Source: Acidocella aquatica
Lineage (GTDB): Bacteria; Pseudomonadota; Alphaproteobacteria; Acetobacterales; Acetobacteraceae
NCBI RefSeq assembly: GCF_030160635.1
Contig: NZ_BSOS01000088.1
Coordinates: forward strand, 1-64,000
Direction: 5' to 3'
DNA: 64,000 nt
This document shows, in pieces, positions 208-12,200 of this stretch. Position numbers and translations under genes: made by a program. Under the pieces are notes generated by a model, which was not told the DNA's origin, did no database searches, and saw nothing but the letters and a program-made list of their open reading frames with translations. Position 1 is the stretch's first letter. Each line of letters begins with the position of its first letter.

Positions 208-2205
208 TCACAAACCAAAGGGATAGGTATCGGGTAGCCCCTCAAGCTCTTTGGTCTCGAAGGGGGTCACCGCCTGGGTTGAATCGAACCAGACATACTC
301 GTCGAATTGCTCCGGCAGAACGGCCTGGAAATAATGGCTGCCGCGTTCGGTCTCCGGCCGGTAAATGACACCTATCGCCCGTTCCAGATGGGGGGTCAGC
401 AGTTTAGCGCGCGCCCGCGGGGCTGACTCGGCGCGCAACGGCAGCATAAAGCGTGGATGGCCGGTTTCATGGCAAAGCCGCTCATAGCTTTGTGGAAGCG
501 ATGGGCGCACGGATTTGATCTCCATCACGCCGTCCCAGCTGGAAGCCGCGGCCACTGTTCCTGAATGGGTGCCAAAACCTATGGCATAGGCGCCATCGCC
601 AAAACTGCCTTTGCACAATTGGCCGATGTTGAACTCGCCGCGCGCCGCCATCTCCGTCGCCGCGGCATTGCCGATGTGGGAGTTATGCGCCCAGACGATG
701 GCCTTGGCGTCCGTGCCATGAAAATCCAGCAGCGCCTTCAATGTCTCGAACATATGGTTGTCGCGCAGATTCCAGGAGGCGCGGCTGCCCTGATACATGA
801 TCCGGTAATACCGCTCGGCATCGCTCACCAGCCGGGCGTTTTGCATCGCATCCATGAAGCGTTCACCATCGTGCACGGTATAGTCGCTCTGTTTGCGCAC
901 GATATCCTCAAGCATGCGGACCACCTCAGCCTCGCAGTTCCGCAAATTTCCGTTCGACGCCGCGCGGCCATATGTCGCGGGGTCACTTTGCCAGGGCGTC
1001 AGGCAGCCATATCGCTCCCGTGCGATCTTCGCGGAATCCGGATCGACTTCATCCAGATATTTTAGAATTACGCCGATGGAGGTGTAGAGACTGTAGAGAT
1101 CAAGCCCATAAAACGCGATCCGCCGGGGGGCGGCATAATTTTTATTATGGGCGTGCAGCCAATCCACGAACGAGCGCATCTCCTTGTTGCGCCACATCCA
1201 GGCCGGGAATCGCGCAAATGCCGTCCATTCACTGGGCGGATATTCAAAATGGCGCACATAATGGTCAAGGCGCGCCACATCGGGCCAGTCGCCTTCGATC
1301 GCGACAAAGCGGAAGCCTTTGCGTTCTATCAACTCCTGGGAAATGCGCTGCCGCATCAGATAAAACTCGGCTGTGCCGTGGCTCGCTTCACCAAGCAACA
1401 CAATTTTCGCATCACCGATCCGCTCCAGCAGCCTCTCGAGATTTGCCTCGCCGATTGAGCCGAACGGTTCAGCCGCAACGGAAATGGCGCCCACGATATC
1501 CGCCTCGGCCAATCGCCGCCGCGCCGGGCCTGGCTCTGGCGGAGCCGGCGCATTTTCCTCGCTCCAGCCCTCATTGCCAATGAGCGGCACAAACCGGACA
1601 TCGGCGAGGTCCTCGCTTTTGAAAGCGCCGCCGGGGAGCCTGGTCACGCGCACAAGCTCCTGGGCGCGCGGATTGATGCCCACCGGAATGACCAGCCGGC
1701 CGCCGATCTTCAGTTGTTCCTTAAGCGATTGCGGAACCTCCGGCCCGCCTGCCGTGACGATGATGGCATCATAGGGTGCCTCCGGGGGCCAGCCCAGGCT
1801 GCCATCGGCATGCAGGACATGGATATTGTCATAGCCAAGAGCCTTCAGCGCCGCGCTTGCCGTCTCGGCCAGTTCGCCGATGCGCTCCACCGTGTAGACC
1901 TGCGCCGCAATTTCGCCCAGCACAGCCGCCGCGTAACCCGAGCCGGTGCCGATTTCGAGAATTTTCTCACCGCCCGCCAGACCGAGCGCCTCCGTCATCA
2001 GCGCCACGATATAGGGCTGGGATATGGTCTGGCCCGCCGCGATGGGAAGCGGCGAATCCTCATAGGCAAATTCCCGAAGCCGGTCTGAGATAAAAGCTTC
2101 CCGCGGCACTTTGCGCAACGCCGCCAATACCAGGCTGGATTTGATTCCACGCGCTTCTATCTGATTTTCCACCATATCCGCACGAAGCTGCGAAAGGTCA
2201 CGCAT
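208..2205 (-). CDS. Fusion of protein-L-isoaspartate O-methyltransferase and erythromycin-esterase-type domain
   Basis: Predicted 665 aa with two domains. Residues 1-210 are a Pcm methyltransferase with the SAM-binding motif EIGTGSGY at 84-91; this family repairs isoaspartyl damage in proteins. Residues about 240-650 are an erythromycin-esterase/succinoglycan-biosynthesis domain with the family's key residues: E273 and H276 in GEASHG, E304 in AIEGDW, and H506 in WAHN. I chose ATG at 2205 because GGAGG sits 5 bases before it and the Pcm homology starts there; the longer frame to 2313 has no ribosome site. Whether the esterase half acts on macrolides is unknown. Many such domains sit in non-resistance proteins, so resistance should not be assumed. 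Confidence 0.85.
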   Translation of the reverse strand: MRDLSQLRADMVENQIEARGIKSSLVLAALRKVPREAFISDRLREFAYEDSPLPIAAGQTISQPYIVALMTEALGLAGGEKILEIGTGSGYAAAVLGEIAAQVYTVERIGELAETASAALKALGYDNIHVLHADGSLGWPPEAPYDAIIVTAGGPEVPQSLKEQLKIGGRLVIPVGINPRAQELVRVTRLPGGAFKSEDLADVRFVPLIGNEGWSEENAPAPPEPGPARRRLAEADIVGAISVAAEPFGSIGEANLERLLERIGDAKIVLLGEASHGTAEFYLMRQRISQELIERKGFRFVAIEGDWPDVARLDHYVRHFEYPPSEWTAFARFPAWMWRNKEMRSFVDWLHAHNKNYAAPRRIAFYGLDLYSLYTSIGVILKYLDEVDPDSAKIARERYGCLTPWQSDPATYGRAASNGNLRNCEAEVVRMLEDIVRKQSDYTVHDGERFMDAMQNARLVSDAERYYRIMYQGSRASWNLRDNHMFETLKALLDFHGTDAKAIVWAHNSHIGNAAATEMAARGEFNIGQLCKGSFGDGAYAIGFGTHSGTVAAASSWDGVMEIKSVRPSLPQSYERLCHETGHPRFMLPLRAESAPRARAKLLTPHLERAIGVIYRPETERGSHYFQAVLPEQFDEYVWFDSTQAVTPFETKELEGLPDTYPFGL

Positions 2206-2412
2206 AACGCCTCCATCTGGCCCGCCATCACCCCGATGGTGAAAATCCGGACCATTCCCGCACAATGGCCGCCCGAGAATTTTTTGGACGGATCGATCAA
2301 AGATCACCGTCACCTATAATCATAAATTGGTGGAAATCTCCTTGATTGAAATCAATGTTGCACCGCAGCAGGCGCCCTCCGTGCCTTCATCCGCCGCGCC
2401 ATAACCGGACAG

Positions 2413-2460: not shown

Positions 2461-2504
2461 GGCGCAAAAGCCCCTTGGGGCCGAAAAACGGGAGTTGCCA
2501 GAGC

Positions 2505-3884
2505 ATGCCGAAGATCGCCCCAGCCTATCGCGATACCTCAGCGCCAAGCTATCAGGAGGTCATTAAGCATGATCCGCGGCCGGCCCCCGCGCTGTTTACC
2601 GCCTATTCCGAAGCCGCAATCGACGTGCCGGGCGTGCCGCGCTCCCAATATACCAGCCCCGAGTTCGCCCAGGCGGAATTGGAGCGCATGTGGCCGCGCG
2701 TCTGGCAAGTGGCATGCCGCGAGGAGCAAATTCCCGAAACCGGTGACCTTGTGGTCTATCACAGCCCCGGTGCCTCGCTGCTCATCGTCCGCAGCGGACC
2801 CGATGAAATCAAGGCATTTTACAATAGCTGCCTGCATCGCGGCATGCAGCTTTGCGCGCATGACACCAGCGTGCAAAAACTCACCTGCCCGTTTCACGGC
2901 TTTGCCTGGAACCTCGATGGCAGCCTGGCGCATGTCCCGGCGCGTTGGGATTTTCCACAACTCGAAGAAGCAAAATTCAACCTGCCCGAAGCGCGCACCG
3001 GCCGCTGGGGCGGGTTTGTGTTCATCAACCGGGACCCGGATGCAGCGCCGCTGGAAGACTACCTCGCCAATCTGCCGGAACACTTTGCCGATTGGCCGCG
3101 CGAGAGCGTTTATCTGGCGCAGATGATCCACAAGACAATGAATGCGAACTGGAAAACCTGCATTGAGGGATTTATCGAATCCTTCCACCTCGCCGGCATT
3201 CATTCGCAGGCGCTGCCATTTGGCGGCGACGCCAGCACGCAATATGATGTCTGGCCCGGCAACGAGACAATCAGCCGTTTTCTCGAACCCGTCGGCGTGC
3301 AGAGCGATCAGTATCCCCGCAGGCTGAATGAGCAGGAGATCCTTGAAGCCTCGCTCGCGACCGTGTTTGGCGGCAGTGAATTTCCACAACTGCCCAAAGA
3401 CATGCGCGCCCGCACATTCCTTGCCACCGCGACGCGCCAGGCGATGAGCGCGGCGGATGGCCGCGATTATAGCACGCTCTCGGACACGGAAGCGGCGGAC
3501 GCGATGCAATATTCGGTATTCCCGAATTTCGTCCTGTTCCGCTCCCTTACCTATCCTTATGCCTACCGGTTCACACCGGTGCGCGATAATCCGAATCAAG
3601 CCGTGTTCGACTTCATGATTTTTAAGCCAAAGCCGCAAGACGGATCGCCGGTACCCGAAACGGAGCATGTGGATTTAGGCCCCGGCGACAGTTTCGCCGC
3701 GTGCGGCGCATTGCCGCCGTGGCTTGGACAGATTTATGACCAGGACTCGGTGGGGCTGGCAATGTGCCAAGCGGGCCTGCGCGACGGTGGCACCGCCGGC
3801 GTGATGTTCTCTGCCTATCAGGAAGTGCGCATCCGCCATCTTCATCAGACCTTGGCACGATATCTGGCAATGCCGCCGCTATAG
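2505..3884 (+). CDS. Rieske non-haem iron oxygenase, alpha (catalytic) subunit
   Basis: Predicted 459 aa. The Rieske [2Fe-2S] ligands are visible as C109-x-H111 and C128-x2-H131. The mononuclear iron site is the E225-x2-H228-x4-H233 segment. This places it among ring-hydroxylating or N-demethylating Rieske oxygenases, which need a separate reductase; none is encoded beside it. ATG 2505 is preferred over an in-frame TTG at 2475 because GGGAG precedes it by 10 bases. The substrate is not known. Glycine-betaine or related quaternary amine demethylation would connect it to the sarcosine genes, but steroid or aromatic hydroxylation is equally possible. It is followed by a strong terminator and faces a convergent SDR-like gene. 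Confidence 0.8.
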   Translation: MPKIAPAYRDTSAPSYQEVIKHDPRPAPALFTAYSEAAIDVPGVPRSQYTSPEFAQAELERMWPRVWQVACREEQIPETGDLVVYHSPGASLLIVRSGPDEIKAFYNSCLHRGMQLCAHDTSVQKLTCPFHGFAWNLDGSLAHVPARWDFPQLEEAKFNLPEARTGRWGGFVFINRDPDAAPLEDYLANLPEHFADWPRESVYLAQMIHKTMNANWKTCIEGFIESFHLAGIHSQALPFGGDASTQYDVWPGNETISRFLEPVGVQSDQYPRRLNEQEILEASLATVFGGSEFPQLPKDMRARTFLATATRQAMSAADGRDYSTLSDTEAADAMQYSVFPNFVLFRSLTYPYAYRFTPVRDNPNQAVFDFMIFKPKPQDGSPVPETEHVDLGPGDSFAACGALPPWLGQIYDQDSVGLAMCQAGLRDGGTAGVMFSAYQEVRIRHLHQTLARYLAMPPL

Positions 3885-3910: not shown

Positions 3911-3949
3911 AAAAAAAGACCGCCTCATCATTGAGGCGGTCTTTTTTAT
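3911..3949. terminator. Bidirectional rho-independent terminator
   Basis: A perfect 10-bp stem (GACCGCCTCA at 3918-3927 with TGAGGCGGTC at 3932-3941, loop of 4) is flanked by seven A on the left and six T on the right. It can end both the rightward Rieske oxygenase gene and the leftward SDR-like gene. Confidence 0.9.
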
Positions 3950-3986: not shown

Positions 3987-4745
3987 TCAGAACTGAACGC
4001 GTTTGGTGTAACCGCCATCAATGATGAGATTGGTGCCGGTGATATAAGATGCCGCCGGACTCGCGAGAAATGCCACCGCCTTCGCCACATCATCCGGCGC
4101 CCCGAAACGCCCCAGCGGAATCTGTGCCAGCGTGGCATCATAAAGACCCGGCATGGCTCCCTTGATCATTTCCCAGTTGCCGCCCGGATAGCTCACCGGA
4201 CCGGGAGAGACAATGTTGACGCGAATACCCTCAGCGGCCCAGGCCTGGGAGAGCTGCTTGCCGTAAGTTATAAGCGCCGCCTTGATGGCGTTAAATGCCT
4301 GAGGAATCAAAAAAGTCTCCACCGCCGCGGTGCTCGACATCAAAATCACCGAACCACTGCCGGATTTCGCAAGATAAGGCTGCAATGCCTCGCACCCATC
4401 AACCGCGCCAAGCATGTCGATTTCAAAACTCTGTTGCCAATCCTGTGTTGCGGCATTGCCCGAAGAGCTGAGGCTATGGATAAAAATATCCGCGCCGCCC
4501 AGTTTTTCGGCGAGGCCACCCAGAAAAGATTTGTAACCTTCGCGATCGGTCAGCGTAAATGCTTGCGCGATCACCTTTGCACCATTTTTCGCCAATGCGG
4601 CGCGATGCGCCTCCAAGGCTTCGGCATTACGGGAAAACATGCCGATTTCCGCACCCTCGGCCGCCAGCAATTCCGTAATCGCCTTGCTGATGCCACGCGC
4701 CGCGCCGCCGATAATAACCTTCCGCTCCTTGAGTCCTAAATCCAT
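3987..4745 (-). CDS. Short-chain dehydrogenase/reductase-like protein without the canonical catalytic Tyr
   Basis: Predicted 252 aa, the usual classical SDR length, with a Rossmann fold and the C-terminal DGG-type segment. The cofactor motif is atypical (GGAARGIS at 13-20, where the last glycine of TGxxxGIG is serine). S138 and K155 of the catalytic triad are present, but residue 151, thirteen after the serine and four before the lysine, is Phe (codon TTT) instead of Tyr. The usual catalytic Asn position also appears to be Asp (about 110). The protein may be a non-canonical enzyme or a binding protein. The start at 4745 is set by AGGAGG nine bases upstream. It lies opposite the MarR gene, about 470 bp away, and has an imperfect palindrome upstream. 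Confidence 0.8.
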   Translation of the reverse strand: MDLGLKERKVIIGGAARGISKAITELLAAEGAEIGMFSRNAEALEAHRAALAKNGAKVIAQAFTLTDREGYKSFLGGLAEKLGGADIFIHSLSSSGNAATQDWQQSFEIDMLGAVDGCEALQPYLAKSGSGSVILMSSTAAVETFLIPQAFNAIKAALITYGKQLSQAWAAEGIRVNIVSPGPVSYPGGNWEMIKGAMPGLYDATLAQIPLGRFGAPDDVAKAVAFLASPAASYITGTNLIIDGGYTKRVQF

Positions 4746-4801
4746 GTTATTATTCCTCCTGGTTTTGATTTTCCGCGCAATTTTCATGATCAGTCAGAGA
4801 T

Positions 4802-5094: not shown

Positions 5095-5215
5095 CATATG
5101 CAGGAACAATGGATTGCCCGGCGGGCGTTCTGAAGCCCATGCTGTTCGCACCATTGCATTTAACGGCCCAGCTGATAAACCTGAACAACCCGGCTAATTG
5201 ATTGAGGAGCAGGTC

Positions 5216-5743
5216 TTGCCGCGAAGCGTTAAGGAGGGAAGGCCAGGCACCTCGCGCCGGCCCAATACCATTACAAAACCCGAAATGGACCCGGTAAAAA
5301 ACGGCGCCGCCTACATGCTCCAGGTGGTGGCGCGGCTGCAGACAACCAGCTTCATCGGCAGGGTTGCGGGAAGTGGCGTGCATCCCGCTGGCGCGTATGT
5401 ATTGCATGAGCTTTGGCGGGCAGCACCACTATCGCAGACGGAATTATCAAAACGGCTGGACATCGGCAACGCCACCGTCGGGCAGACCGTCAAGCGGCTT
5501 GAAAGCCGAGGTCTGGTCAAGCGGAAACAATCGACTGAGGACCGCCGTGTCGTCATGGTTGAGCTTACCGCAAAGGGGCGCTCACTGGAGATTTTCTTTG
5601 ACCGCGAGACCCAAGGGTTGACCGCGGAGATCAACGGCGTTCTGGGCTTGAAGGGCACAGAGACGCTAACAAAGCTGCTGACCCGTCTTGCGGATCATTT
5701 CCGCGCAAGCCTCTCAACGGATGACCCAGAGAAACCAGAATGA
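5216..5743 (+). CDS. MarR-family transcriptional regulator
   Basis: Winged helix-turn-helix protein. The segment QTELSKRLDIGNATVGQTVK is the recognition helix region and the following ESRGLVKRKQSTEDRRVV is the MarR wing with its usual D-R-R. Such proteins are dimeric repressors released by small phenolic or other ligands. The start is uncertain: TTG at 5216 has GAGGAG seven bases upstream, TTG at 5198 opens the frame, and ATG at 5285 lacks a ribosome site but fits the family's domain start. Its position divergent from the SDR-like gene makes that gene, and possibly the Rieske oxygenase gene with its palindromic promoter, likely targets. Confidence 0.85.
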   Translation: MPRSVKEGRPGTSRRPNTITKPEMDPVKNGAAYMLQVVARLQTTSFIGRVAGSGVHPAGAYVLHELWRAAPLSQTELSKRLDIGNATVGQTVKRLESRGLVKRKQSTEDRRVVMVELTAKGRSLEIFFDRETQGLTAEINGVLGLKGTETLTKLLTRLADHFRASLSTDDPEKPE

Positions 5744-7291: not shown

Positions 7292-8659
7292 TCAACATTC
7301 GATAAAATTCGCGGCAAGTCCGCCGAGTGATGTTTCCTTGTATTTTGAGTTCATGTCCGCGCCGGTTTGGCGCATCGTTGCAATAACCTGATCGAGCGAG
7401 ACGAAATGGGAACCATCGCCGCGTTTGGCCAGCGAGGCCGCGCTGATCGCCTTGATGGCGCCAAACGCATTGCGCTCGATGCAGGGTATCTGCACCAGCC
7501 CGCCAATCGGGTCGCAGGTCATGCCCAGATGATGCTCCATGGCGATCTCTGCGGCGTTTTCCACCTGCTCGTTGCTGCAGCCACGCGCCGCCGCCAGCCC
7601 GGCGGCCGCCATCGATGCCGCAACCCCGACCTCACCCTGGCAGCCCACTTCAGCGCCGGAAATCGAGGCATTGGTCTTGAACAATCCGCCGATCGCGGCA
7701 GCCACGAATATGAAATTCCGCATGCCCTCGTCCGACGCGCCAGGGCACATCGTACGGTAATAGCGCAACACCGCGGGTATGACACCAGCAGCGCCATTGG
7801 TCGGCGCGGTGACGATCCGCCCGCCGGCCGCATTTTCCTCGTTCACCGCCATGGCAAACAGGCTGACCCAGTCCATCTTCTCATGCGGGGCCATGTCGTT
7901 GCGGTTTGTATCGGCTTCAAGCCGTTCGTGCAAAGCTCTGGCGCGGCGCGGCACCTTCAACGCGCCTGGCAACAGGCCCTCGCCACACAACCCCCTGTCG
8001 ATCACGGCCATCATGATGGCAATCATCCGATCCACATACGCAATAACCTCCGCCTCCGGGCGGAGCGCGAATTCGTTTGCGCGCACAATCGCAGCGATCG
8101 TCAACCCCGTCTCCCGGCCTATGCGCAAAAGATCAACCGCATGATCGAATGGATAAGGCACCGGCGCTAAAATCGCGCCGCGTTCGCCTGGCTGGTCCTC
8201 GCGCACCACAAACCCGCCGCCAACCGAACACCAGCGCTCCGCGGCAAGGCAGGCGCCGGTGTCATCCAGCGCCTCGAACGCCAATGTATTGGGGTGGCGC
8301 GGCGCCGGTGTTTCACGGTCAAATGTGATATCGGTTGCGGGGATAAACGGAATTTCCCTTCCACCTAATGCGAGCCTGCCACGTAGCGAAATATCCGCGA
8401 CCAGGGACTCCGCGCGGCCGGGGTCCACTGTATCGGGCAATTCGCCGGCCAGCCCAAGAACAACCGCCTTGTCCGTGGCATGCCCCTTGCCCGTCCACGC
8501 CAGCGAACCAAACAGCGTAACGCGCAGCCGCGCGACGCGCGCAGCCACCCCCGCCGCCATCAATCCTGCAACAAAATGATTGGCCGCACGCATCGGCCCC
8601 GTGGTGTGCGAAGACGATGGGCCTATCCCGGCCTTGAACAGCTCAAATACGCTTATCAT
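7292..8659 (-). CDS. sdaA: L-serine ammonia-lyase (iron-sulfur type, single chain)
   Basis: 455 aa, full length for the one-chain bacterial enzyme that converts L-serine to pyruvate and ammonia. It opens with the SDH-beta domain (GIGPSSSHTTGPMRAA) and continues into the SDH-alpha domain with TAPTNGAAGVIPAV. Conserved cysteines in GCQGE, TCDPIGG and IPCIER are the expected ligands of the oxygen-sensitive [4Fe-4S] cluster. The gene starts 3 bases after the soxG stop, so it is the last gene of the sarcosine operon. There it would drain the serine made from sarcosine carbon into central metabolism. Confidence 0.95.
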   Translation of the reverse strand: MISVFELFKAGIGPSSSHTTGPMRAANHFVAGLMAAGVAARVARLRVTLFGSLAWTGKGHATDKAVVLGLAGELPDTVDPGRAESLVADISLRGRLALGGREIPFIPATDITFDRETPAPRHPNTLAFEALDDTGACLAAERWCSVGGGFVVREDQPGERGAILAPVPYPFDHAVDLLRIGRETGLTIAAIVRANEFALRPEAEVIAYVDRMIAIMMAVIDRGLCGEGLLPGALKVPRRARALHERLEADTNRNDMAPHEKMDWVSLFAMAVNEENAAGGRIVTAPTNGAAGVIPAVLRYYRTMCPGASDEGMRNFIFVAAAIGGLFKTNASISGAEVGCQGEVGVAASMAAAGLAAARGCSNEQVENAAEIAMEHHLGMTCDPIGGLVQIPCIERNAFGAIKAISAASLAKRGDGSHFVSLDQVIATMRQTGADMNSKYKETSLGGLAANFIEC

Positions 8660-8662
8660 CGT

Positions 8663-9229
8663 CTATTCCGGGTATTCACGGCCGACGATGGATAGCAGAC
8701 TCCAGACATAGGGCACAAAAGATCGCCAAACCTCCAGATAAAAACTAAACTCATCCTGGCGCCAAAGCACGGCTTCCGCCTTAAAAAAATTCGTGCGTGT
8801 CACCATCCCAACCGGAAAGGCGGCGAGGTCAAAATCAAGCGCGCAACCGCTGTTGAGAATATCAGGCACTGCCGCGCCATTGAGCATGAGGCCGGTCTGG
8901 CGATGGCTGATGTCCGTCAGCGAATAACGCCTATCCGTCAGCCGCGCCGCGAGGAGTGGCGCCACGCTAGCGGCCTCGGTTTCGGGCCAGAGCAACAGCC
9001 ATTCATCCGGGCTTAGGCGCATCGCGCCGCGGCTGTTCACCACCGAGGCGCGGTTAAGCGGCACCGCGAGATCGATGCCAAGCGCCTCCGCCGCCGGGCC
9101 GATCGCGGCTTCGCGCAACCGCAGCAGAAAACGCGCGCCGCCATTAACCGGGGTGTAGCGCCGGTCACCCGTATCCGCGCAGGGGGGAACGCGCCGCGCT
9201 GGCGCAACCATGTGCACAAGATTAGCCAT
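8663..9229 (-). CDS. soxG: Sarcosine oxidase gamma subunit
   Basis: 188 aa; the sequence (including SPDEWLLLWPE, DISHRQTGL and the C-terminal FYLEVWRSFVPYVWSLL) matches the small gamma subunit of heterotetrameric sarcosine oxidase, which resembles a GcvT-type fold without catalysis. ATG 9229 overlaps the soxA stop by 8 bases, so the two are translationally coupled. The much longer frame to 9406 merely overlaps soxA. Confidence 0.9.
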   Translation of the reverse strand: MANLVHMVAPARRVPPCADTGDRRYTPVNGGARFLLRLREAAIGPAAEALGIDLAVPLNRASVVNSRGAMRLSPDEWLLLWPETEAASVAPLLAARLTDRRYSLTDISHRQTGLMLNGAAVPDILNSGCALDFDLAAFPVGMVTRTNFFKAEAVLWRQDEFSFYLEVWRSFVPYVWSLLSIVGREYPE

Positions 9230-12200
9230 TGAGCCTGACTCCTTCCGGGTCATAGAAAACGGATGAAACCACCGTGACGCGCGCATCGCCGCTTTCAAGC
9301 GGGACATGGAGCGTCTCGCCGGTTCGTGCCGCGCCGTCGCGCAACAAGGCCAACGCGATCGACCGGCCGAGGGTCTCGCTCCAATAGGAGGAGGTGATGT
9401 GGCCAAGCATTGTCATCGGCTTGGGTTGCGCGGGGTCGGCGACGATATGCGCGCCTTCCTCCAGCACAAGAGCCGGATCGGCGGTGAGCAGGCCGACAAG
9501 CTGCTTGCGGTTGGTCTGCGTGGCGAAGGCCTCGCGCGCGAGAGCCCGCTTGCCCACGAAATCAGGCTTCGCCTTGCCAATCATCCCGCTATAACCAACA
9601 TCGGCTGGCGTCACCGTGCCGTCGGTCTCCTGGCCAACGATGATATACCCCTTCTCCGCGCGCAGCACATGCATGGTCTCGGTGCCATAAGGCGTGATGC
9701 CATGCGCAAGCCCGCTCTCCATCAACGCCTCCCAAACGCTCCGGCCATAATCGGCGGGCACGTTGATCTCAAAGCCGAGTTCACCCGTGAAGCTGACACG
9801 GAACAGCCTGGCGGGAACCCCCGCGATGCGGCATTCCACCATGCTCATATGCGGCATGGCCTTGGCGGAAATATCCGCCCCCTCCACCAGCGGTTCAATA
9901 ACCTGGCGCGCCAGCGGCCCCTGTAGCGCGATCACCGCATATTGCTCGGTGGTCGAGGTCAGCCAGACATCGAGTTCGGGAAACTCGGTTTGCAGATAAT
10001 CCTCCATCATCGCCAGCACACGCGGTGCGCCGCCCGTGGTAGTGGTGACGTGGAAACATGTCTCGGAGACCCTGCCGATCACCCCGTCATCAATGATGAA
10101 ACCGTCCTCGCGCAGCAATATGCCATACCGCAACCGTCCCGGCTGCAGCTTGGTCCATGCGTTGATATACATGCGGTTGAGAAACTCCGCCGCATCGGGG
10201 CCAACCACCTCGATCTTGCCCAGAGTTGAGGCATCGAATATGCCCACGCCGCCACGCACCGCGCGGCACTCCCGCGCGACCGCCGCGCGCATGTCCTCCC
10301 CGCCTTGGGGAAAGTAGCGCGCACGCTTCCAAAGGCCGACATCCTCAAACACCGCGCCCCGCTCGGCCGCCCAGCCGTGAATCGCGGTGCGGCGCTCGGG
10401 CTCGAACAATTCGCCGCGCGCGTATCCGGCGAAATAGCCAAACGGCACCGGCGTATAGGGCATGCGGAACGTCGTGGTGCCGATCGCGGAAACCGGCTTG
10501 CCCAGTTCCGCCGACATAATTCCCAACGCATTCATGTTGGAAAGCTTGCCCTGGTCAGTCGCCATGCCGGTGGTCGTGAAGCGCTTGACATGCTCAACCG
10601 AGCGCATCCCCTCGCGCAACGCCAGCGAAACATCCTTTGCGGTGACATCGTTCTGATAATCAACAAAGGCGCGCACGGAAGTTGGATCCACATGACCCGG
10701 CACAACACCGATGAAGCCGCCGCGCGCGAGCGGCGCATTCGTGACCTGATAGGTAACCGCGGCTCCCCCCACGGCGCCGGCGCCCGCCGCGGCACCAGAC
10801 TCCAACGCCTCCTTCAACGTCTGCAAACCCGCCCCGGCCCCCGCGACGCGGCATGCCTCGGCCGGCGCGCCCGGTAAAAACGCATCCAGTGTGGCATCAA
10901 ACACCAATTTGCCGCGGCTCTGCGAAAAGAGATGCACGCTGGGCGTGAAGCCGCCCGACATCAGAATGGTGTCACAGTCAATCCGCTGCTCAGCACCACC
11001 CGCCAGCGAAACCACGGTGGCACGGGCCACGCGCAGCCGCCCGCCCGTGCCCGAAACGGTGGAGGCCAGATAAATCGGCAACCCCGCCCGGCGCGCCGCC
11101 GCGGCATAGGGGCCATCCGCGGCCGGGCGCATATCCACGATCCCCGCAACCGCGCAACCGGCGCGGTGCAGCGCCAGCGCGGTCCGGTAGGCGCTGTCAT
11201 GCGCGGTGAACACCAGGGGCTTGCGGCCCGGCAAAACACCGTAGCGTTCGGCATAGATACGCGCCGCCTCCGCCAGCATGATGCCCGGACGGTCATTATC
11301 AGGGAAGACCAGCGGCCGCTCGATCGCGCCAGCCGCGATCACCACCTCCTTCGCCCGCACCTGCCAGAGCCTGCCCCGGGGCGATGTATCATCCGGCTCA
11401 CCGGCATGATCAGTCAGCGACTCCGCAAGCCCGAGCATGTTATGCGGAAAATAGCCAAAAGCGATGGTGCGCGCCAAAACCTTAACCTTTGGGAACGCCG
11501 CAAGCTGGGCCAGCGCCGCCTTGAGCCAGTCCGCCGCGGGCAAGCCGTCGATCACCGCATCCGGTTCCGCGAGGAGCGAGCCACCCGGCTCGGCTTGTTC
11601 ATCGCACAAAATCACCCGCGCGCCGGTTTTGGCGGCGGCCAGCGCCGCGGCGAGGCCAGCAGGCCCGGCGCCGATCACCAGCACATCGCAATGCGCGAAA
11701 CGCTGCGCATAACACGCGGCGTCCGGCGTTTGCGGCGACCGGCCGAGACCTGCCATTTCGCGAATGCGCGGCTCGAAGAATTTCGTCCACGCCTTCCTCG
11801 GCCACATGAAGGTCTTATAGTAGAACCCGGCCGGAAAAAAGCGCCAGAGCAGATCGTTCACGGCCCCGTAATCGCGCACCAGCGAAGGAGACCGGTTCTG
11901 GCTTTCCGCCTTCAGCCCGTCATACAGCTCCACCTGGGTGGCGCGCAGATTAGGCGTATAATGAGCGTCATCGCAGCCAACGCCGGCAAGCGCATTCGGC
12001 TCCTCGGCCCCCGCCGAGAGAATGCCGCGCGGACGGTGATATTTGAATGACCGCCCAACGAGATGCACGCCATTGGCCAGTAGTGCCGAAGCCAGCGTAT
12101 CGCCCTGATAGCCCTTGTAATGCTTGCCATCGAAGCTGAAGCCAAGTGTGCGCGAGCGGTCGATCCGCCCGCCCGCCGCAAGCCGGTAAGCCTGGGTCAT
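9222..12200 (-). CDS. soxA: Sarcosine oxidase alpha subunit
   Basis: 992 aa, normal for the large subunit of heterotetrameric sarcosine oxidase. The N-terminal part is a 2Fe-2S-ferredoxin-like fold (DTLASALLANG). It is followed by a dinucleotide-binding domain (DVLVIGAGPAGLAAALAAAK). The C-terminal ~400 residues form a GcvT-like tetrahydrofolate-binding domain, which captures the methyl carbon released from sarcosine as 5,10-methylene-THF. The start overlaps the soxD stop as ATGA. The order soxB-D-A-G is the standard one for this complex. Confidence 0.97.
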   Translation of the reverse strand: MTQAYRLAAGGRIDRSRTLGFSFDGKHYKGYQGDTLASALLANGVHLVGRSFKYHRPRGILSAGAEEPNALAGVGCDDAHYTPNLRATQVELYDGLKAESQNRSPSLVRDYGAVNDLLWRFFPAGFYYKTFMWPRKAWTKFFEPRIREMAGLGRSPQTPDAACYAQRFAHCDVLVIGAGPAGLAAALAAAKTGARVILCDEQAEPGGSLLAEPDAVIDGLPAADWLKAALAQLAAFPKVKVLARTIAFGYFPHNMLGLAESLTDHAGEPDDTSPRGRLWQVRAKEVVIAAGAIERPLVFPDNDRPGIMLAEAARIYAERYGVLPGRKPLVFTAHDSAYRTALALHRAGCAVAGIVDMRPAADGPYAAAARRAGLPIYLASTVSGTGGRLRVARATVVSLAGGAEQRIDCDTILMSGGFTPSVHLFSQSRGKLVFDATLDAFLPGAPAEACRVAGAGAGLQTLKEALESGAAAGAGAVGGAAVTYQVTNAPLARGGFIGVVPGHVDPTSVRAFVDYQNDVTAKDVSLALREGMRSVEHVKRFTTTGMATDQGKLSNMNALGIMSAELGKPVSAIGTTTFRMPYTPVPFGYFAGYARGELFEPERRTAIHGWAAERGAVFEDVGLWKRARYFPQGGEDMRAAVARECRAVRGGVGIFDASTLGKIEVVGPDAAEFLNRMYINAWTKLQPGRLRYGILLREDGFIIDDGVIGRVSETCFHVTTTTGGAPRVLAMMEDYLQTEFPELDVWLTSTTEQYAVIALQGPLARQVIEPLVEGADISAKAMPHMSMVECRIAGVPARLFRVSFTGELGFEINVPADYGRSVWEALMESGLAHGITPYGTETMHVLRAEKGYIIVGQETDGTVTPADVGYSGMIGKAKPDFVGKRALAREAFATQTNRKQLVGLLTADPALVLEEGAHIVADPAQPKPMTMLGHITSSYWSETLGRSIALALLRDGAARTGETLHVPLESGDARVTVVSSVFYDPEGVRLNG

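What the first reader, a model, noticed from the sequence alone, without database searches (positions are those of the whole stretch)
3987..4745. SDR-fold protein with Phe in place of the catalytic Tyr
Codon TTT at residue 151 replaces the Tyr of Y-x3-K, while S138 and K155 stay. The cofactor motif and the Asn position are also altered. Yet the gene has an excellent ribosome site, a full-length frame and its own divergent regulator, so it is kept for some function.
Basis: partly seen in the sequence, partly recalled or inferred. Interest (0 to 1): 0.5.

Follow-up and report, generated by a model that had tools for sequence, protein, structure and literature searches.

The report
Conserved SDR-fold enzyme lacking catalytic tyrosine
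This gene makes a protein of a very common enzyme fold in which the usual catalytic tyrosine is a phenylalanine, and close relatives in many bacteria share that change, so it is a conserved variant rather than a broken gene; what reaction it carries out is not yet known.

Summary
In detail: a 252-residue classical SDR fold with Ser138, Phe151 and Lys155. Phe is no isolated mutation: 48 of 53 relatives with at least 50% identity have it, and 52 of 95 members of a wider subfamily defined by Asp110 where SDRs have the catalytic Asn. The 43 Tyr members are mostly distant. One clade holds all 52 Phe rows and 6 Tyr rows, and at least two Tyr/Phe changes are needed. Ser138, Glu143 and Lys155 are in 52 of 52 Phe rows and Arg39 in 48; dN/dS is 0.01-0.15 in 11 pairs. 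Of 48 Phe loci, 29 have a Rieske oxygenase, 24 a glutathione transferase and 23 a ThuA gene nearby, against none of 21 control loci. Best reading: a working NADP(H)-dependent SDR in catabolism of a hydrophobic compound whose reaction does not need Tyr151 as acid; as in eugenol synthase, Lys with water or the substrate's own hydroxyl may replace it. Chemistry and substrate are inferred; a silent partner subunit is one rival. No close named family or structure was seen. New variant of a known kind; moderate interest.

The parts
3987..4745 (-). SDR-fold protein, 252 aa, D110-S138-F151-K155
   Evidence: (PF13561, PF00106)
4755..4760 (-). ribosome-binding site AGGAGG, 9 nt from the ATG
   Evidence: read from sequence
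3911..3948 (.). hairpin with 10-bp arms (3918-3927/3932-3941) between an A run and a T run: a two-way terminator candidate between the convergent SDR and Rieske genes
   Evidence: read from sequence; no terminator scan or folding was run
2475..3884 (+). Rieske ring-hydroxylating oxygenase alpha subunit, convergent with the SDR
   Evidence: PF00848, PF00355; relatives near other Phe-SDR genes
5198..5743 (+). MarR-family regulator, divergent from the SDR
   Evidence: PF01047; relatives in L017, L056, L105

Best explanation
It is a functional, NADP(H)-binding classical SDR of an unnamed subfamily with the centre Asp110-Ser138-(Tyr or Phe)151-Lys155, used in catabolic pathways for hydrophobic compounds that often include Rieske oxygenases. 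In the Phe clade the reaction does not need a tyrosine hydroxyl as acid/base. Most likely NADPH gives hydride to an activated substrate (a conjugated C=C, a quinone-methide-like species or a carbonyl polarised by the substrate itself), and the place of the Tyr hydroxyl is taken by water or by a hydroxyl of the substrate, held by Lys155 with Ser138 and Asp110 near. Shown: residues, conservation, phylogeny, a confident fold model, neighbourhoods. Inferred: cofactor binding, redox chemistry, proton path, substrate class.
For: Phe in 48 of 53 relatives of at least 50% identity (one of the six search patterns held the Phe, so retrieval leans slightly to Phe) and in 52 of 95 of the wider set. In the 52 Phe rows: S138 52, E143 52, K155 52, R39 48 (Ser in 4); R39 after strand 2 without an acidic residue there points to NADP(H) (rule recalled). 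dN/dS 0.014-0.150 in 11 pairs, some with saturated dS. AlphaFold2 pLDDT 95.1, pTM 0.93; VIA-align Z up to 34 to classical SDRs. In the flanks (up to 6 kb) of 48 Phe loci: Rieske 29, GST 24, ThuA 23, against 0, 0 and 0 of 21 control SDR loci (near-copies and unequal flanks, so not independent). Precedents for SDR relatives that reduce without the Tyr: eugenol synthase lacks it, keeps the Lys, and the ligand's p-hydroxyl lies roughly where the Tyr hydroxyl would be, with a Lys-bound water (PMC1991597, passages); SimC7, Ser-Ile-His, substrate-assisted (PMC5039031, passages and section 11).
Against: No assay, no ligand-bound structure, and no coordinates to place D110, E143 or a water. A Tyr-to-Phe change usually abolishes SDR activity (recalled). 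Tyr returns in L046/L049 or in the L087/L106/L108/L127 group, or both, so the hydroxyl may matter for some substrates. Position 90 of NNAG is His in 48 and Pro in 4 of 52 Phe rows, and position 93 is Ser in 52. Of the 5 Tyr loci in the set, Rieske and GST were near none and ThuA near 1, but 5 of 8 Tyr plasmid loci have a Rieske gene, so the context does not cleanly separate Phe from Tyr. Some members lie outside any evident catabolic cluster (L108, L133).
Confidence: 0.5

Rival explanations
1. A catalytically silent SDR subunit that forms a hetero-oligomer with an active SDR, as the pseudoenzyme subunit of BbsCD does in anaerobic toluene degradation.
For: BbsCD (PDB 7pcs) is among the structural matches; 'inactive pseudoenzyme subunits' is in the title of a paper seen only in a reference list (FEBS J 2021, in PMC10818641). 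A second SDR gene lies in the flanks of 27 of 35 relatives with at least 5 kb on both sides.
Against: 8 of those 35 loci and the first 12 kb of the window have no second SDR, and the search of the own genome lists no other SDR inside the 64-kb window. Lys155, Ser138, Glu143 and the cofactor site stay conserved in the Phe clade.
Confidence: 0.2
2. A non-redox enzyme on the SDR fold (isomerase, dehydratase or lyase) that keeps the cofactor as a structural or transient element, with Asp110 or Glu143 as the acid/base.
For: Asp110 marks the whole subfamily and Glu143 is in 91 of 95 members, Phe and Tyr alike; crotonase, SnoaL-like and ThuA genes in some neighbourhoods suggest chemistry beyond simple oxidation.
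Against: The same residues are in the Tyr members, which look like ordinary reductases; no relative with such an activity turned up in the searches made.
Confidence: 0.2
3. Isolated mutation or decaying gene.
For: Phe and Tyr codons are one base apart, and the position does switch on the tree.
Against: Phe is shared by 48 of 53 near relatives and by a paralogue in the same genome; dN/dS is low; intact frame and ribosome site.
Confidence: 0.03

Closest known systems
Classical SDR reductases (FabG, tropinone reductase, L-sorbose reductase 3ai1)
   Same: Full-length fold match, Z 33-34; Ser138, Lys155, PG motif, Arg39
   Different: Catalytic Tyr is Phe, catalytic Asn is Asp, NNAG is altered; 22-32% identity in the 50 rows shown
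Eugenol synthase (PMC1991597)
   Same: SDR relative without the catalytic Tyr that keeps the catalytic Lys and uses NADPH
   Different: Stated there to be a PIP-family enzyme and monomeric; plant biosynthesis; its sequence was not compared here
SimC7 (PMC5039031)
   Same: SDR superfamily, NADP cofactor, Ser kept, no tyrosine acid
   Different: Ile and His replace Tyr and Lys; here Lys is kept. Sequence not compared
P. aeruginosa short chain oxidoreductase Q9HYA2 (PDB 3lf2, title mentions an atypical catalytic centre)
   Same: SDR fold, Z 32.8 over 244 residues
   Different: 26% identity; its catalytic residues were not read here
BbsCD (PDB 7pcs)
   Same: SDR fold in aromatic catabolism, with a pseudoenzyme subunit
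   Different: 22% identity in the listed chain; the window gene has no SDR partner beside it

Membership tests
Classical SDR superfamily | Rossmann fold and adh_short/adh_short_C2 profile | tested here: met
   PF13561 E 3.3e-48, PF00106 E 5.3e-30; Z 34
Classical SDR superfamily | Asn-Ser-Tyr-Lys catalytic tetrad | tested here: not met
   Asp110-Ser138-Phe151-Lys155; hence filed as a variant
Classical SDR superfamily | NNAG motif | tested here: not met
   HSLS here; position 90 is His or Pro in all 52 Phe rows
Classical SDR superfamily | NADP(H) binding and oxidoreductase activity | not testable with these tools
   site residues conserved; no assay
Named NCBIfam SDR families | score above the curated cut-off | tested here: not met
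   for this protein: best 153 bits against a cut-off of 215; none of the 25 families shown (of 220) reaches its cut-off
BbsC-type pseudoenzyme subunit | SDR partner encoded alongside | tested here: inconclusive
   none near the window gene and none in 8 of 35 relatives with full flanks, but present in 27; a partner elsewhere is not excluded
cd05344 BKR_like_SDR_like (recalled) | match to that CDD model | not tested
   CDD is not available here

The most novel reading that the evidence does not exclude
A widespread SDR subfamily with an Asp-Ser-Phe-Lys centre that catalyses hydride transfer without the tyrosine, its proton coming from a substrate hydroxyl, a Lys-held water, Asp110 or Glu143, and in which evolution has changed the residue between Tyr and Phe at least twice.
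Probability: 0.3. Interest if true: 0.65.

Novelty: new variant of a known kind. Interest (0 to 1): 0.4.

Why it matters
The tyrosine is the textbook acid/base of SDR enzymes. A conserved clade that lost it while keeping Lys, Ser and the cofactor site, with natural Tyr and Phe sister proteins, is a ready-made comparison for asking when that tyrosine is needed. Ten Sphingobium plasmid records label the nearest plasmid relatives '3-ketoacyl-ACP reductase', a label that this centre does not support.

Tried and rejected
PDB sequence searches with the protein (385 sequences at E 1e-10, best 60 shown) and with a 40-member profile (145 at E 1e-40, best 60 shown) listed general SDRs, none scoring as a close relative. 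NCBIfam with the 40 members listed general SDR models; its member table prints no cut-offs, so only this protein was held against them. Foldseek and VIA-align listed classical SDRs; a family not listed there is not excluded. Ten literature searches: 39, 52, 59, 75 and 76 returned no paper; others returned 34 papers in all (31 listed, some twice), of which I opened passages of PMC1991597, PMC5039031, PMC10818641, PMC10338323 and PMC6172241; nothing seen there is about this subfamily. EvdS6 (PMC10338323) keeps its YxxxK and was set aside. PmMOR (PMC6172241) was considered as a Tyr-to-Phe case, but its Y179F variant did not express. A single Phe clade without any return was rejected (p-AU 0.0006); holding only L046/L049 outside (p 0.064) or only the L087/L106/L108/L127 group outside (p 0.30) was not, so two separate returns are not proven. 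A first residue count in the own genome had wrong strands and was redone. Raw SDR counts include the SDR itself and were redone. Some neighbour ORFs (clusters 1 and 5) look by eye like antisense artefacts and were not used.

Full report
Observation. The minus-strand frame 3987-4745 encodes 252 residues with S138, F151 and K155. Against FabG chains, F151 aligns with the catalytic Tyr and D110 with the catalytic Asn. AGGAGG lies 9 nt before the ATG. In the same genome, 46 of 52 aligned SDRs have Tyr at this position; only this protein and its 63% paralogue have Phe (27 of the 79 hits were not aligned).

Conservation. A scan of GTDB contigs gave 74 loci, of which 53 (L013-L065, near-copies included) have at least 50% identity; 48 of the 53 have Phe and 5 Tyr (L046, L049, L059, L060, L061), and all 53 have K155 and D110. 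With loci from whole genomes and plasmids, 104 distinct rows were aligned. Of these 95 have both D110 and W191; the other 9, at 25-32% identity, have Asn110. The 95 split into 52 Phe and 43 Tyr. The set is thus defined by D110, so its invariance there is by choice, but the gap is clean. In whole-genome samples a match at E 1e-60 is in 5 of 38 genomes of the genus and 11 of 289 of the class, and at E 1e-50 in 19 of 398 of the phylum, the own genome counted in each (only the best candidates per genome were scored). The gene is sporadic.

Phylogeny. A quick tree (SH-aLRT only, column 151 left out) puts all 52 Phe rows and 6 Tyr rows in one clade (98), with the other Tyr rows outside; the least number of changes is 3, and starred branches force 2. 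A strict single Phe clade is rejected (p-AU 0.0006), but either nested Tyr group alone may lie outside. The likeliest course is one Tyr to Phe change and one or two returns; the direction rests on the outer Tyr members and an outgroup of three Tyr SDRs.

Constraint. dN/dS by a Nei-Gojobori script is 0.014-0.150 in 11 chosen pairs. In the Phe clade S138, E143, K155 and N190 are in 52 of 52 rows and T139 in 51. Positions 37, 95, 102 and 190 separate Phe rows from the 37 outer Tyr rows, but the six nested Tyr rows mostly carry the Phe-clade letters at 95, 102 and 190, so these mark the clade rather than the Phe itself. The retained cofactor site argues against a protein that lost NADP(H).

Structure. 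AlphaFold2 on 47 sequences gave pLDDT 95.1. VIA-align places it among classical SDRs at 1.4-2.3 A in the 50 rows shown.

Surroundings. In the window the SDR converges on a Rieske oxygenase and diverges from a MarR gene. In relatives the Phe-SDR lies near Rieske oxygenases (29 of 48), GST (24 of 48) and ThuA (23 of 48); 21 control SDR loci found by the same scan have none of the three. The 5 Tyr loci of that scan have 0, 0 and 1; of 8 Tyr plasmid loci 5 have a Rieske gene and none the GST. Several annotated plasmid loci, Phe and Tyr, also show CoA ligases, crotonase, acyl-CoA dehydrogenases or 2-oxoacid dehydrogenase genes; others do not (L108, L133). MMPL transporters are near 16 of 48 Phe loci and YCF48-type proteins near 11; in the Pseudomonas locus L036 both are confirmed by Pfam, with a PRK07121-type flavoprotein above its cut-off. 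This points to catabolism of hydrophobic compounds; the compounds are not identified.

Mechanism. I favour an NADP(H)-dependent SDR that works without the Tyr hydroxyl. Eugenol synthase is a published SDR relative that lacks the Tyr and keeps the Lys: the ligand's p-hydroxyl lies roughly at the place of the Tyr hydroxyl and is reached by a Lys-bound water (PMC1991597, passages). SimC7 uses the substrate's own proton (PMC5039031). A phenolic or otherwise self-activating substrate would fit a pathway with Rieske oxygenases; this is inference. Rivals are a silent partner subunit and a non-redox enzyme. None can be decided from sequence.

Novelty. No NCBIfam model reached its cut-off among those shown, no solved structure listed is close, and no paper seen in my ten searches is about this subfamily. 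SDRs without the Tyr are known, so it is a new variant of a known kind.

Noticed in passing
window 208-2313, minus: One frame holds a PCMT methyltransferase domain and an erythromycin-esterase domain (PF01135 and PF05139), a possible fusion; a related frame lies near the SDR in L013.
   Followed up: no
window 7292-12200, minus: Frames that look by eye like L-serine dehydratase and sarcosine oxidase subunits (no family search).
   Followed up: no
window 3911-3948: A 10-bp-arm hairpin flanked by A and T runs between two convergent genes, a two-way terminator candidate.
   Followed up: no
L175 (G000:C90:124000-137000): Second Phe-SDR copy of the same genome, near frames that look by eye like VOC, thiolase, SDR, SnoaL and MMPL proteins.
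   Followed up: partly
L105 6520-10216: In Sphingobium sp. TomTYG46 a MarR relative faces a crotonase, the Phe-SDR and a Rieske-like gene in a row.
   Followed up: partly
own-genome SDRs L142, L162, L167, L168: Four other SDR-like proteins of the genome lack the Tyr as well, with Ser or Gly at that place.
   Followed up: no
window genome: Proteins identical between the Acidocella MAG locus L028 and same-genus loci L102/L103 suggest that the genome lies in or near Acidocella.
   Followed up: no
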